Origin: Oscillospiraceae bacterium
Lineage (GTDB): Bacteria; Bacillota; Clostridia; Oscillospirales; Acutalibacteraceae
Assembly: GCA_015065425.1 (NCBI GenBank)
Contig: SVQH01000024.1
Location: 1 to 48,334 of the forward strand
Length of the DNA stretch: 48,334 nt
Reading direction: 5' to 3'
Every line of letters starts with the position of its first letter. The stretch's first letter is position 1. Under the pieces are notes generated by a model. It worked only from the letters and a program-made list of their open reading frames with translations. It was not told the origin of the DNA and ran no database searches. Made by a program: the position numbers and the translations under genes. Below are positions 3,381 through 37,618 of the stretch, piece by piece.

Positions 3381-4043
3381 TTATTTGTACAGTCTGAAAA
3401 AATTTTTATGAGCGGCAAGTATACCTTCTTTCTGCAGTTTTCCTATCTCTGCCGAAAGACCGCTTCTGTCAACCTCAAGATAATCTGCAAGTTCCTGTCT
3501 GTCAAAAGGAATGAAAAACTCACTGTTACCCTCCTTACGGGACATCATGCTGAGATAAGCAAGAAGCTTTTCTCTTGTACTTCTTTTGGATATGACCTCT
3601 ATTCTCTGATGAAACTGCACCGTTTTTGCGGCGATATCCTTCATGAGATTATATATCAGCTGAGAGTGAAAGCCGCAGCTGTTTTTGCAGGTATGAAGAA
3701 TATGGGAACATTCAATAAACATTATTTCGCTCTCCTTTGTAGCAATTACCGACACGGGGAGCTTTTCTGTTTCATTGCAGGAAAATGCCTCACCGAAAAT
3801 TTCTCCTTCACCTATAACACTGAGTATACTCCTGTTACCGTAAAAATCTGTCTGCTCTGTCTGGACACTGCCTGAAAGAACTATACCGATATATTTTGCA
3901 GGGCTTCCCTCTGCCATTACCGTATATTTTTTGTCAAACACGTCTGTTCTTGCACCAAGACAGTGAAGCATTGTTATAAGGTCGTTATCACCTATTCCGT
4001 AAAAAAGCGGACATTTTTTCAGAATTTCAAGATATTTTTTCAT
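3381..4043 (-). CDS. Crp/Fnr family transcriptional regulator
   Basis: This 220-residue protein has the Crp/Fnr architecture: an N-terminal cyclic-nucleotide-binding-like beta barrel (residues about 10-125, with GSVQTEQTDFYGNRSILSVIGEGEIFGEAFS), a long dimerisation helix and a C-terminal winged helix-turn-helix (FDRQELADYLEVDRSGLSAEIGKLQKEGIL). It has scattered cysteines (residues 11, 28, 88, 112, 119, 123) but not an obvious classical FNR four-cysteine arrangement, so the effector is uncertain. It is divergently transcribed from the D-2-hydroxyacid dehydrogenase. A 7-2-7 palindrome between them is placed for autoregulation and for activation of the dehydrogenase promoter. The context (ferredoxin, flavodiiron protein, hydrogenase maturation) suggests a redox, NO or oxygen response. 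Confidence 0.9.
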   Translation of the reverse strand: MKKYLEILKKCPLFYGIGDNDLITMLHCLGARTDVFDKKYTVMAEGSPAKYIGIVLSGSVQTEQTDFYGNRSILSVIGEGEIFGEAFSCNETEKLPVSVIATKESEIMFIECSHILHTCKNSCGFHSQLIYNLMKDIAAKTVQFHQRIEVISKRSTREKLLAYLSMMSRKEGNSEFFIPFDRQELADYLEVDRSGLSAEIGKLQKEGILAAHKNFFRLYK

Positions 4044-34498: not shown

Positions 34499-35614
34499 TT
34501 ATTTTCCTATTTTTTGCGTAAATTTTTCCATAATATCCGGAATGTCTATACACTGCGGACACAGCTCCTTGCATTTTCCGCAGGAAATACAGGCAGAGGG
34601 TCTGTTTTCCTCGGGAATACTCTGAAGCTTCATGGGTGCTAAGAATCCGCCGCCCGTGAAGGTATGCTCGTTGTACATGGCGATTATATCGGGAATATTT
34701 ATTCCCATGGGACAATCCTTTGCACAATATCTGCAGGCTGTACAGGGAACTCCGCGTGTCATGCTGTCTGCAAGTGTGAAAAGCTCCTTCATCTCACTGT
34801 CGCTGAGAGGGTCATCTTCGCTGAAAAGACTCACATTCTCTTGCATCTGTGAAACGGAAGAAGCACCCGACAGCACTGTAACCACGGAAGGAATACTCTT
34901 AAGAAAACGGTAGCTCCATTTTACGGGCGAAAAATCGGGATATTTTTTTCTTATTTCCGTCATAGCTTCATTTTCTTTTGCAAGCTTACCTCCCCTGAGA
35001 GGTTCCATTACCCATACGGGAATACCGAGATTATTGAGTATTCTGATTTTTTCCTTTGCATTCTGAAAATCGTAATCCACCCAGTTGAGCTGAATCTGGC
35101 AGAACTCCATGTTTTCGCCGTATTTTTCAAGAAAACGATTCATAGTCTCAGTGCTTCCGTGAACGGAAAAGCCGAGATGCTTTATTCTGCCGTTTCGCTT
35201 CTGCTCCAGAAGATATTCATAAGTGCCGTGAACAGGGTTCAGATATTCGTCAATATTAAGCTCACACACATTGTGGATGAGATAAAAATCGAAATATTCC
35301 ATGCCTGTTTTCTGAAGCTGCTTTTCAAATATCTCCTCGACTTTTCCCATATTATTAAGGTCATAGCCGGGGAATTTTGTTGCGATATAATAAGATTCTC
35401 TCGGATAACGGTTAAGTATTTTTCCGACTACCCTTTCACTCTCTCCCCCGTGATAGCCCCAGGCAGTGTCAAAATAATTCACACCGTTTTTAAGTGCATA
35501 ATCTATCATGAGAGCCGTTTCTTCCTCATCAATAACGGAGTCTTTCACAGGGAGACGCATTGTACCCATAGAAAGCAGAGAAAGCTTTTTGTCCTTGAAT
35601 ATTCTGTAAAGCAT
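34499..35614 (-). CDS. Aldo/keto reductase with C-terminal 2x[4Fe-4S] domain
   Basis: This 371-residue protein joins an aldo/keto reductase barrel to a two-cluster ferredoxin-like tail. The barrel catalytic residues are Asp49, Tyr54, Lys80 and His114 (VNYFDTAWGYHGG, IATKFPGYD, DFYLIHN). The tail has CTACRYCAKDCPMGINIP and CISCGKCKELCPQCIDIP. Such Fe-S AKRs occur widely in anaerobes and reduce carbonyl groups using ferredoxin-linked electrons or NAD(P)H. It is the first gene of the minus-strand glycoside cluster; the GNAT-Gfo gene follows 36 bases downstream. It has its own promoter (TTGTAA, 17 bases, TATTAT). Confidence 0.92.
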   Translation of the reverse strand: MLYRIFKDKKLSLLSMGTMRLPVKDSVIDEEETALMIDYALKNGVNYFDTAWGYHGGESERVVGKILNRYPRESYYIATKFPGYDLNNMGKVEEIFEKQLQKTGMEYFDFYLIHNVCELNIDEYLNPVHGTYEYLLEQKRNGRIKHLGFSVHGSTETMNRFLEKYGENMEFCQIQLNWVDYDFQNAKEKIRILNNLGIPVWVMEPLRGGKLAKENEAMTEIRKKYPDFSPVKWSYRFLKSIPSVVTVLSGASSVSQMQENVSLFSEDDPLSDSEMKELFTLADSMTRGVPCTACRYCAKDCPMGINIPDIIAMYNEHTFTGGGFLAPMKLQSIPEENRPSACISCGKCKELCPQCIDIPDIMEKFTQKIGK

Positions 35615-35645
35615 AATTATTCCTTCTTTTACTATATTTAATTTT

Positions 35646-35674
35646 ATAATACATCAAAAAAAATTTTTTTACAA
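35646..35674 (-). promoter_or_regulatory. Promoter of the AKR-led glycoside cluster
   Basis: On the minus strand TTGTAA (35669-35674) and TATTAT (35646-35651) are 17 bases apart. It is back to back with the plus-strand promoter at 35680. Confidence 0.55.
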
Positions 35675-35679
35675 TATAC

Positions 35680-35708
35680 TTGACAAATAAACATAGAATG
35701 ATTATAAT
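35680..35708 (+). promoter_or_regulatory. Consensus promoter of the candidate small RNA
   Basis: TTGACA (35680-35685), exactly 17 bases, TATAAT (35703-35708): both hexamers are perfect. No protein gene starts within the following 260 bases. Confidence 0.85.
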
Positions 35709-35715
35709 AAAAATG

Positions 35716-35735
35716 TAGTTAGCATCTGCTAACTA
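35716..35735 (+). promoter_or_regulatory. Palindromic operator at the small RNA start site
   Basis: TAGTTAGCA (35716-35724), TC, TGCTAACTA (35727-35735) is a perfect 9-2-9 palindrome sitting on the transcription start. Its TTAGC/GCTAA form recalls DtxR-family (iron or manganese) boxes; that assignment is from memory and unverified. Confidence 0.65.
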
Positions 35736-35863
35736 ATCACACAGCATTCGGAGGGTCATACTTCCTTTATTCCTTTCAATAAAACTCCTCCATTGGTTTT
35801 GTCTTCATTTTATTATGACCCTCCGCAAATTCGCCCCCCTTTCCTTAATATATATCTCCAAAA

Positions 35864-35905
35864 GAAGGCTTCATGTATCCGCACATGAAGCCTTCGACTT
35901 TTTTC
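35864..35905 (+). terminator. Strong intrinsic terminator of the candidate small RNA
   Basis: GAAGGCTTCATGT (35864-35876) pairs perfectly with ACATGAAGCCTTC (35883-35895), 6-base loop, then GACTTTTTTC. It ends seven bases before the promoter of the beta-helix gene. Confidence 0.9.
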
Positions 35906-35911
35906 AGAATA

Positions 35912-35940
35912 TTGACATCCTGCTCAGGTTGTGCTATTGT
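35912..35940 (+). promoter_or_regulatory. Promoter of the beta-helix protein gene
   Basis: TTGACA (35912-35917), 17 bases, TATTGT (35935-35940), 35 bases before the ATG. Confidence 0.75.
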
Positions 35941-35974
35941 TTATTTGATTATTAAAGCAAGGAGAGATAACATA

Positions 35975-37618
35975 ATGAAAAAAATATTAAGTGTTTTTCT
36001 TGCAGCTGTCATTGTATTCTCTACAATGGCATTTACACTTCCCTTTGCAGGAGCATTGACTGCAAATACTTATTACATCGACTCTCTTGAAGGAGACAAC
36101 AGCAACAGCGGTAATACTCCTGAAGAAGCATGGAAAGACCTTGGCGGTTTCACCAATGAGTCGCTCGGTGCAGGTGATAAGGTTCTTTTCAGAAGCGGCG
36201 GCACTTATGACTGTGCGGTTACCCTTTCAGGTCTTAAAGGTACAAAGGATGCCCCCTTTGTCATCTCTTCCTACGGTGAGGGCGACAGACCGATACTGAA
36301 AACTGAACTTCATGAGGAAGTTTTTACATTTATTGACTGCTCATATATCACTGTTTCTGACGTTCAGATAACTGCTCCCAACGGCGGCGGAATATGGATT
36401 GACACAATAAATGAAGAAAGTGTCGGCATGACAATAGAAAACGTTTACTTTTTCGGACTTCCCAACGGCAAGGTAACGGGAAGAGATGATATGTCAAGAG
36501 GTGCTGCTCCTGCCCGTGCCGCTGTCGTAGTAAAAGGACTTCCCGCAAATTCAAGATATCCCGTAAATGACCTTACAATTACAGGCTGTGAGGTATACGA
36601 CTCGGCAAACGGTTTTCTTATCTGGGGTTCGTGGAACGATGAGCAGAATCCCTGGTGTGACGATGATGAAAAAGACCCCATATACAATGAGGGTGTTCTC
36701 ATTTCGGACTGCTATTTTCACGAAATGGATGCGGAAGCCGTAATAATCGGTATATGTGATGGTGCACTCGTAACGCACTGCAGAGCCATAAACACCTGTC
36801 AGGGTGAAGGCGTTGACGAAAACGGCGAGATACTTTATTTCACAGCTGCCATGTGGTTCTGGGGTTCAGAAAACAGCACCATACAGTACTGCGAAATTGC
36901 AGGACAGAAAAATATCGGTGACGGTATGACCGTTGACTTTGACTCAGGCACAAACAACTGCACATATCAGTATATCTATTCACACGATAATCAGCGTTTT
37001 GTTGTAAACAATGCAAAGGATGACCCGCAGAAAAACAACACCGTAAGATACTGTCTTTCCGTCAATGACAATAAAGGCAGAAGCTCTATAGCCTCGGGTA
37101 ACGGTGAAGACGGTCTTAAATTCTACAACAACACCATTGTTAACTGCGGTGAATTTCAATTCTATCATCTTTCAAACAGCCTTATTGCCAATAACATCAT
37201 TATCCCTATGGTTGGTGAGGTTATAAATTTTGATATTGAGGATGAATTTTACGGAAAGAATACCTACAAAAACAACTGTTATTACAATACTCTTAATCCC
37301 GGCTGCGACCTGCTTTCAATGAATACCTTGCCCGCTTTCGTCGGCGGTGAGGGTACCGAAGCATATAAACTTGCAGTAAACTCACCCCTTCTCGGAAAGG
37401 GAATGGAAATTGACGACGGTGTGCTTTATGACTTCTACGGCAATGAAATAACAAGCACAAACATCGGCTGTTATATGGGACAGGGAGAAGAGCCTGAAGC
37501 AGAGACCGAAAACTGCTTTATAAAATTCTTCAGAATGATAAAGAATTTATTCGACAGAATAATGCACGAACTGAAAGTTATTGAAAGAGAACTGAAAGAA
37601 AAGTTGGGAATTGAATAA
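35975..37618 (+). CDS. Secreted right-handed beta-helix protein
   Basis: This 547-residue extracellular protein starts at the ATG at 35975 after AAGGAGAG, with a signal peptide MKKILSVFLAAVIVFSTMAF and cleavage near AGALT. The N-terminal part reads TYYIDSLEGDNSNSGNTPEEAWKDL, the typical start of pectate-lyase-like or DUF1565 surface proteins. The body is a chain of beta-helix coils (VTHCRAINTCQGEG, NSTIQYCEIAGQKN, VRYCLSVNDNKGRSS). The C-terminus departs from the helix. After a Glu-rich linker it has NCFIKFFRMIKNLFDRIM and a charged coiled-coil-like tail, a pattern similar to the end of the secreted protein at 37707. It may be a polysaccharide lyase or a carbohydrate-binding surface protein. 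Confidence 0.85.
   Translation: MKKILSVFLAAVIVFSTMAFTLPFAGALTANTYYIDSLEGDNSNSGNTPEEAWKDLGGFTNESLGAGDKVLFRSGGTYDCAVTLSGLKGTKDAPFVISSYGEGDRPILKTELHEEVFTFIDCSYITVSDVQITAPNGGGIWIDTINEESVGMTIENVYFFGLPNGKVTGRDDMSRGAAPARAAVVVKGLPANSRYPVNDLTITGCEVYDSANGFLIWGSWNDEQNPWCDDDEKDPIYNEGVLISDCYFHEMDAEAVIIGICDGALVTHCRAINTCQGEGVDENGEILYFTAAMWFWGSENSTIQYCEIAGQKNIGDGMTVDFDSGTNNCTYQYIYSHDNQRFVVNNAKDDPQKNNTVRYCLSVNDNKGRSSIASGNGEDGLKFYNNTIVNCGEFQFYHLSNSLIANNIIIPMVGEVINFDIEDEFYGKNTYKNNCYYNTLNPGCDLLSMNTLPAFVGGEGTEAYKLAVNSPLLGKGMEIDDGVLYDFYGNEITSTNIGCYMGQGEEPEAETENCFIKFFRMIKNLFDRIMHELKVIERELKEKLGIE

What the first reader, a model, noticed from the sequence alone, without database searches (positions are those of the whole stretch)
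35680..35905. Free-standing, metal-operator-like controlled small RNA with C-rich loops
Between the minus-strand glycoside cluster and a secreted beta-helix gene there is a complete transcription unit without a protein. It has a perfect promoter (TTGACA, 17, TATAAT), a perfect 9-2-9 palindrome on the start site (TAGTTAGCA...), a 12-bp long-range helix (CGGAGGGTCATA) enclosing a pyrimidine-rich loop with ACTCCTCCA, a C-run at 35834-35839 followed by TTTCCTT, and a 13-bp terminator with T6. The next gene has its own promoter after that terminator. Small RNAs with unpaired C-rich stretches that mask Shine-Dalgarno sites (for example FsrA of Bacillus, Fur-controlled, iron-sparing) have just this design. 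I do not recognise the sequence as any named RNA family. The iron or manganese link via a DtxR-type box is inference.
Basis: partly seen in the sequence, partly recalled or inferred. Interest (0 to 1): 0.82.

Follow-up and report, generated by a model that had tools for sequence, protein, structure and literature searches.

The report
Iron-switched small RNA in gut Clostridia
A short stretch of DNA in a gut bacterium appears to encode a small regulatory RNA that is switched on by the same signal as the cell's iron importer when iron runs low, and that probably blocks translation of selected messages by covering their ribosome-binding sites.

Summary
A consensus promoter, a perfect palindrome at the start site, a 12-bp long-range helix and a terminator form a unit of about 187 nt with no evident protein. 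The fold is far stronger than shuffles (z -8.4). Two of 25 other genomes of the genus carry clear homologues; 5 of 10 helix pairs changed on both sides with pairing kept. Promoter, operator, AAACUCCUC and UAAUAUAUAUCUCCA are conserved; the C6 run is not. The palindrome is an iron operator: it recurs before feoB and, less exactly, feoA in the same genome, and before feoA/feoB in 49 of 118 named loci. A DtxR-family repressor is present. It is not the next gene's leader. Unpaired CUCC recurs in 4 of 11 other ORF-less units against 1 of 80 protein-gene leaders. Best reading: an iron-repressed trans-acting RNA masking Shine-Dalgarno sites. Predicted targets show no iron-sulfur enrichment; one ferredoxin-oxidoreductase operon is a lead. 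No Rfam match. Transcription and targets are untested.

The parts
35680..35708 (+). sigma-70-type promoter TTGACA-17-TATAAT
   Evidence: 12 of 12 consensus; -35 to operator 25 of 36 columns invariant in three species
35716..35735 (+). iron operator: perfect 9-2-9 palindrome on the predicted start site
   Evidence: same box before feoB, variants before feoA; 18 of 20 columns invariant
35716..35904 (+). small RNA gene, about 187 nt; start inferred as 6-8 nt after the -10 box
   Evidence: fold z -8.4; homologues in G013 and G019
35749..35760 (+). 5' strand of the long-range helix (CGGAGGGTCATA)
   Evidence: 10 aligned pairs, 5 with changes on both sides in 3 sequences, 29 of 29 scored cells paired
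35814..35825 (+). 3' strand of the long-range helix (TATGACCCTCCG)
35782..35790 (+). AAACTCCTC: conserved, mostly unpaired anti-Shine-Dalgarno-like loop element
   Evidence: 9 of 9 identical in three species while the flanking loop is 17-26% invariant
35846..35860 (+). TAATATATATCTCCA: conserved single-stranded tail before the terminator
   Evidence: 15 of 15 identical in three species; neighbouring linker 16% invariant
35864..35904 (+). intrinsic terminator, 13-bp stem and T6
   Evidence: homologues end in terminators of different sequence and comparable size

Best explanation
The unit is a free-standing gene for an iron-repressed, trans-acting small RNA. When ferrous iron is plentiful, a DtxR-family repressor probably binds the palindrome at the start site and blocks transcription, as it would at feoA and feoB. 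When iron is short the RNA is made, held together by the long-range helix, ended by the terminator, and presents CUCC elements (loop AAACUCCUC, tail UAUCUCCA) mostly as single strands. These pair with the Shine-Dalgarno region of target mRNAs and stop their translation. Shown by computation: unit anatomy, conservation, helix covariation, operator shared with feoAB, and independence from neighbours. Inferred: the repressor's identity as binder, transcription, pairing with targets, and an iron-sparing role. The best single target candidate is the first gene of a 2-oxoacid:ferredoxin oxidoreductase operon.
For: Fold z -8.4. Homologues G013 and G019 keep promoter, operator, helix (5 of 10 pairs with double changes), loop and tail motifs. 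Own-genome places within 3 mismatches of the 20-nt palindrome: the RNA and two at feoB and feoA (3 places, against 1 for the reversed control). Promoter-coupled operators in 26 genomes of the genus: 17 against 0 for the reversed control; 7 before feoA, 3 DUF3793, 1 P1B-ATPase, 6 without a match to these references. A DtxR-family gene in all three genomes, divergent from feoA with boxes between in G105 and G121. Fully unpaired CUCC in 7 of 11 hand-picked units against a shuffle mean of 1.7 (0 of 200 shuffles reach 7); in 6 of 13 mechanically chosen units, two of them homologues of this RNA, against a mean of 2.2 (1 of 100), and in 1 of 80 protein-gene leaders. Target lead: 12 contiguous pairs between AAAACUCCUCCA and the site before a ferredoxin-type gene, the longest of 226 start regions in G000; 5 of 400 mock RNA sets have a best loop score as good.
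Against: No transcript data. Iron-sulfur genes as a class do not pair better than others: p 0.46, 0.45 and 0.17 in three genomes; 68 conserved triads p 0.81. Loop-plus-tail scoring puts a gene without an iron-sulfur motif first and the ferredoxin gene third. In G013 the pairing with that gene uses a different part of the loop; the longest contiguous match in G019 (13) and in G013 (11) is to other genes. The conserved tail has no close complement beyond chance in the three genomes: 6 one-mismatch places, about as many as the reversed control, none at an obvious gene start by eye. Only 3 of 26 genomes carry the family, so covariation rests on three sequences. At 2 mismatches the 16-nt core is about as frequent as its reversed control in the own genome (6 against 5), so only exact or promoter-coupled sites inform.
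Confidence: 0.68

Rival explanations
1. A regulated 5' leader (attenuator) of the downstream secreted-protein gene rather than an independent RNA.
For: It lies directly upstream of that gene on the same strand, in the window and in G019.
Against: A 13-bp terminator with T6 and a separate 10-of-12 promoter lie between. In G006 the same two neighbours flank a short spacer with no operator and no RNA. In G013 the nearest long ORF beyond the RNA points towards it.
Confidence: 0.06
2. The RNA acts mainly by binding a protein (for example an RNA chaperone or ribosome component) or as a sponge for another RNA, with CUCC and the AU-rich tail as binding sites, not by masking mRNA start sites.
For: The 15-nt AU-rich tail beside the terminator is identical in three species, yet close complements in these genomes are no commoner than the control. 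No enrichment for iron-sulfur targets.
Against: CUCC, complementary to Shine-Dalgarno cores, is exposed more often than chance in ORF-less units under the same operator.
Confidence: 0.2
3. The operator answers to manganese or another metal rather than iron.
For: DtxR-family proteins include manganese sensors (recalled); a P1B-type ATPase with heavy-metal domains carries a two-mismatch variant of the box in three genomes.
Against: The commonest operator partners are feoA/feoB, ferrous iron importers; a flavodoxin, a classic low-iron substitute (recalled), also carries it.
Confidence: 0.12
4. A small-protein gene.
For: The unit is long enough for a short ORF.
Against: No closed ORF of at least 8 codons with a Shine-Dalgarno-like site in the three homologues; conservation of the frames was not tested.
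Confidence: 0.03

Closest known systems
FsrA of Bacillus subtilis
   Same: Iron-repressed small RNA of a Gram-positive bacterium that reaches Shine-Dalgarno sites through a C-rich motif (passages of PMC9410917, and of PMC12871923).
   Different: FsrA is 84 nt and helped by the Fur-controlled FbpA/B/C. This RNA is about 187 nt with a 12-bp helix, and its operator goes with a DtxR-type gene. No Rfam match.
IsrR of Staphylococcus
   Same: Iron-repressed, several single-stranded C-rich regions, sites overlapping Shine-Dalgarno sequences, terminator of variable sequence (passages of PMC9410917).
   Different: Fur boxes; two stems with conserved sequence and little covariation; targets verified. Here the helix covaries and targets are only predicted.
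MrsI of Mycobacterium tuberculosis
   Same: Small RNA made on iron starvation, with a site for IdeR, a DtxR-family regulator, in its promoter (passages of PMC8628891). Closest in type of control.
   Different: About 100 nt with a six-nucleotide seed; another phylum; no direct sequence comparison was made here.
Other ORF-less operator units (L084, L129, L134, L213 and others)
   Same: Promoter, same operator at the start site, terminator, unpaired CUCC.
   Different: No sequence or helix homology with this RNA visible by eye; not tested by alignment.

Membership tests
any Rfam 15 family (RyhB- and FsrA-type families are held there by recall) | covariance-model score above the curated cut-off | tested here: not met
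   No match at the gathering score in the window; a permissive scan of 35600-36000 at E up to 10 gave 7 hits, all far below their cut-offs, none of this kind. Homologues L002 and L003: none.
iron-sparing small RNAs (functional class) | transcription repressed by an iron-sensing regulator | tested here: inconclusive
   Operator shared with feoA/feoB and a DtxR-family gene present; no expression data.
iron-sparing small RNAs (functional class) | free-standing RNA with its own promoter and terminator | tested here: met
   Predicted from sequence:
iron-sparing small RNAs (functional class) | represses mRNAs of iron-containing proteins | tested here: inconclusive
   No class enrichment; one ferredoxin-oxidoreductase operon candidate.
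FsrA/IsrR-type C-rich RNAs | unpaired C-rich stretches complementary to Shine-Dalgarno sites, conserved | tested here: met
   Loop and tail elements identical in three species. The tail CUCC is fully unpaired in all three predicted folds; the loop CUCC fully so in G013 and partly paired in the window RNA and G019, where the window's overlapping second CUCC is unpaired. The C6 run is not conserved.
FsrA/IsrR-type C-rich RNAs | control by Fur | tested here: inconclusive
   A DtxR-family gene is present in the three genomes and beside the boxes elsewhere; presence of Fur was not searched.
DtxR-family regulator | Fe_dep_repress and Fe_dep_repr_C domains | tested here: met
   PF01325 and PF02742 above cut-off in proteins of three family relatives; best matches 63-66% identical to one of them in G000, G013, G019, not themselves scanned.

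The most novel reading that the evidence does not exclude
Anaerobic Clostridia hold a widespread, repeatedly re-invented class of small RNAs under one DtxR-type iron operator. The RNAs share no sequence, only a design: operator at the start site, exposed CUCC elements, intrinsic terminator. Each rewires which start sites are masked when iron is short, and in this genus the RNA follows the start site of a 2-oxoacid:ferredoxin oxidoreductase operon as it changes.
Probability: 0.35. Interest if true: 0.78.

Novelty: new member of a known kind. Interest (0 to 1): 0.62.

Why it matters
Iron-sparing small RNAs are described for enteric bacteria, Pseudomonas, Bacillus, Staphylococcus and mycobacteria (list in a passage of PMC9410917). 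Clostridia of the herbivore gut depend on ferredoxin, hydrogenase and radical-SAM enzymes (general knowledge), so an iron-sparing RNA there would act on the core of their energy metabolism. The searches made here listed no report of one (one search was too broad to inform). The operator found here gives a simple rule for finding more: look for it at start sites that lead to a terminator and not to a protein.

Tried and rejected
Leader of the downstream gene: rejected. Small protein: no support. Known Rfam family: none. Weak model hits beyond three genomes of the genus: the 23 loci read by eye were mostly operator copies before other genes, or chance; searches of 300 genomes of the family and 394 of the order gave nothing above 31.3 bits apart from the own genome, which scores 157 (stricter filters). 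Complement of the conserved tail: 6 one-mismatch places in three genomes, as many as the reversed control, none at an obvious gene start by eye. Class enrichment of iron-sulfur genes among pairing targets: negative; in a first run the tail score alone gave p 0.011 in G019, and after shuffle correction the tail score reached p 0.049 and the other two p 0.71 and 0.85, all uncorrected for multiple tests. rnfG ranks first by raw energy but eighth after shuffle correction. The loop score of the ferredoxin gene moved from -3.5 to -2.5 with a new set of shuffles, so these scores are rough. The gene caller is a simple script and some starts are wrong (for example a mutS-like fragment). The gene sample was drawn around iron-sulfur hits, so neighbours are not an unbiased control. 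The unit list was hand-picked with hand-set ends. The mechanical list took 21 flagged units of 135, dropped 7 whose locus carries a labelled protein and one duplicate, missed the window unit itself and misplaced some terminators, and gave a weaker result. Absence of unpaired GGAG in these units says nothing, since shuffles also give almost none.

Full report
WHAT IS THERE. The RNA folds at -53 kcal/mol against a shuffle mean of -24.4 (z -8.4, 0 of 200 shuffles as good). Among ORFs of 8 codons or more closed within the RNA, in this unit and its two homologues, none has a Shine-Dalgarno energy better than -2.2 kcal/mol. The window has no Rfam match, and a permissive scan of the region gave only hits far below their cut-offs.

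CONSERVATION. A DNA search of 59 related genomes (own included) gave two foreign matches below E 1e-11, G013 (L002) and G019 (L003); all other foreign matches were at E 2.5e-4 or weaker. G019 corresponds to the public contig JAFSGH010000008.1, Clostridia bacterium RGIG3116 from goat rectum. A covariance model from the three finds strong matches only in these 3 of 26 genomes of the genus, and nothing above 31.3 bits, against 157 for the own copy, in 300 genomes of the family or 394 of the order. In the three sequences all 29 scored cells of the 10 aligned helix pairs form, with both partners changed in 5 of the 10; partner shuffles reach this in 1 of 500, and sliding the partner destroys it. 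Three sequences are few, and the structure was drawn from them. By segment, invariant columns are: promoter 25 of 36, operator 18 of 20, helix strands 5 of 11 each, AAACTCCTC 9 of 9, TAATATATATCTCCA 15 of 15, against 16-27% in the remaining linkers, loops and terminator. The last two motifs were picked because they are invariant.

INDEPENDENCE FROM NEIGHBOURS. The gene on the other side, divergent, is an aldo/keto reductase with a C-terminal 4Fe-4S domain (PF00248, PF13187). In G006 that gene (82% identical) and the downstream secreted-protein gene (recognised by eye) lie about 110 nt apart, with neither operator nor RNA between. In G013 the nearest long ORF beyond the RNA points towards it. 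The unit is therefore a cassette gained or lost on its own, not a leader.

THE OPERATOR IS AN IRON BOX. In the own genome, places within 3 mismatches of the palindrome are the RNA and two others, against 1 for the reversed control. One lies before feoB, the other before feoA (PF02421, PF04023); the feoB copy has the exact 16-nt core. Promoter-coupled operators occur 17 times in 26 genomes of the genus and 0 times for the reversed control: 7 precede feoA, 3 DUF3793, 1 a P1B-type ATPase, and 6 have no match to these references (this RNA, its two homologues, L213, L214, L215). A P1B-ATPase also carries a two-mismatch variant of the box in the own genome and both homologue genomes. Clustering of downstream ORFs puts feoA/feoB in 49 of 118, DUF3793 in 17, enolase in 9, DUF2325 in 8 and a flavodoxin cluster in 3 (one member per cluster scanned with Pfam). 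The distance from TTGACA to the operator peaks sharply: 95 of 118 at 29-32 nt though 26-36 were allowed. That places the operator at the expected transcription start, where a repressor would block polymerase (inference). A DtxR-family gene match occurs once in each of G000, G013 and G019. In G105 and G121 it stands divergent from feoA with the boxes between them; in G154 boxes precede it. At 2 mismatches the 16-nt core is hardly commoner than its control in the own genome (6 against 5), so weak copies were not used.

DESIGN SHARED WITH OTHER UNITS. Other ORF-less, terminator-ended units stand under the operator in the genus and elsewhere. L134 (Erysipelotrichaceae) shows two unpaired CCUCC; L084, L129 and L213 one CUCC each. 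In 11 hand-picked units, unrelated by eye and including this one, 7 have a fully unpaired CUCC against a shuffle mean of 1.7 (0 of 200 reach 7). In 13 mechanically chosen units 6 do, against a mean of 2.2 (1 of 100 reach 6); two of the 13, both positive, are the homologues of this RNA, which leaves 4 of 11. Of 80 leaders of labelled protein genes under the same operator, 1 does, where shuffles give 1.5. This supports an anti-Shine-Dalgarno role.

TARGETS. Start regions were collected around Fer4_7 and radical-SAM hits in the three genomes: 226, 173 and 147 genes in G000, G013, G019, 68 conserved triads. Iron-sulfur genes do not pair better as a class (p 0.46, 0.45, 0.17; triads 0.81). Real RNAs pair slightly better with start regions overall than shuffled ones (2, 0 and 5 of 25 shuffles as good in G000, G013, G019). 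The best loop candidate is the first gene of an operon for a 2-oxoacid:ferredoxin oxidoreductase (71-aa ferredoxin-type protein, L281:1477; the next ORF reads as its alpha-type subunit, named by recall). AAAACUCCUCCA pairs without a gap over 12 bases with UGGAGGAGUUUU ending just before its start codon, the longest of 226 in G000. In G019 the same loop element pairs; in G013 another loop segment does; and the longest contiguous matches in those two genomes are to other genes. In a test with mock RNAs, 5 of 400 sets have a best loop score over 68 triads as good; with loop and tail together a gene without an iron-sulfur motif comes first and this one third. It is a lead, not a result.

LITERATURE. 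Passages on IsrR (PMC9410917), FsrA (PMC12871923), MrsI (PMC8628891) and the iron response of C. difficile (PMC6311696; one match for 'small RNA', in the reference list, none for 'sRNA') were seen; no paper was read whole. Searches for iron-responsive small RNAs in Clostridia and for the operator sequence listed no prior report in the held library; some listings were capped, one search was too broad to inform, and subscription papers are mostly not held.

VERDICT. A conserved, free-standing RNA gene, by all sequence evidence, under an iron operator; of a known functional kind but a new family. Iron control is well supported by sequence; Shine-Dalgarno masking is likely; the targets are open.

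Noticed in passing
L100, L119, L144, L148, L161, L162, L163, L178, L187 (downstream of the operator): The same promoter-coupled iron operator stands before enolase genes in 9 of 118 loci: 6 titled Lachnospiraceae or Butyrivibrio, and one each Oscillospiraceae, Saccharofermentans and Treponema. Why a non-iron glycolytic enzyme should be in this regulon is unexplained.
   Followed up: no
L097, L103, L104, L108, L128 and others; L209, L216, L222: DUF3793 (17 of 118 loci) and DUF2325 (8 of 118) genes recur under the iron operator; their functions are unknown.
   Followed up: partly
L238:2713-5217, L239:228-2726 (minus), L237:1538-3016: A P1B-type metal ATPase carries a two-mismatch variant of the iron box at its promoter in G000, G013 and G019.
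   Followed up: partly
L134, operator match 3546-3596: Erysipelotrichaceae MAG with an ORF-less unit under the operator showing two unpaired CCTCC elements and a terminator; a separate candidate iron RNA.
   Followed up: partly
L131 and L160 (Ruminococcaceae RUG14762, RUG13936): A near-identical ORF-less unit in two genomes with a CCCTCCC/GGGAGGG helix; the anti-Shine-Dalgarno strand is sequestered, not exposed.
   Followed up: no
window 34499-35614 minus: The divergent aldo/keto reductase has a C-terminal 4Fe-4S domain; whether it shares the promoter region's control is open.
   Followed up: no
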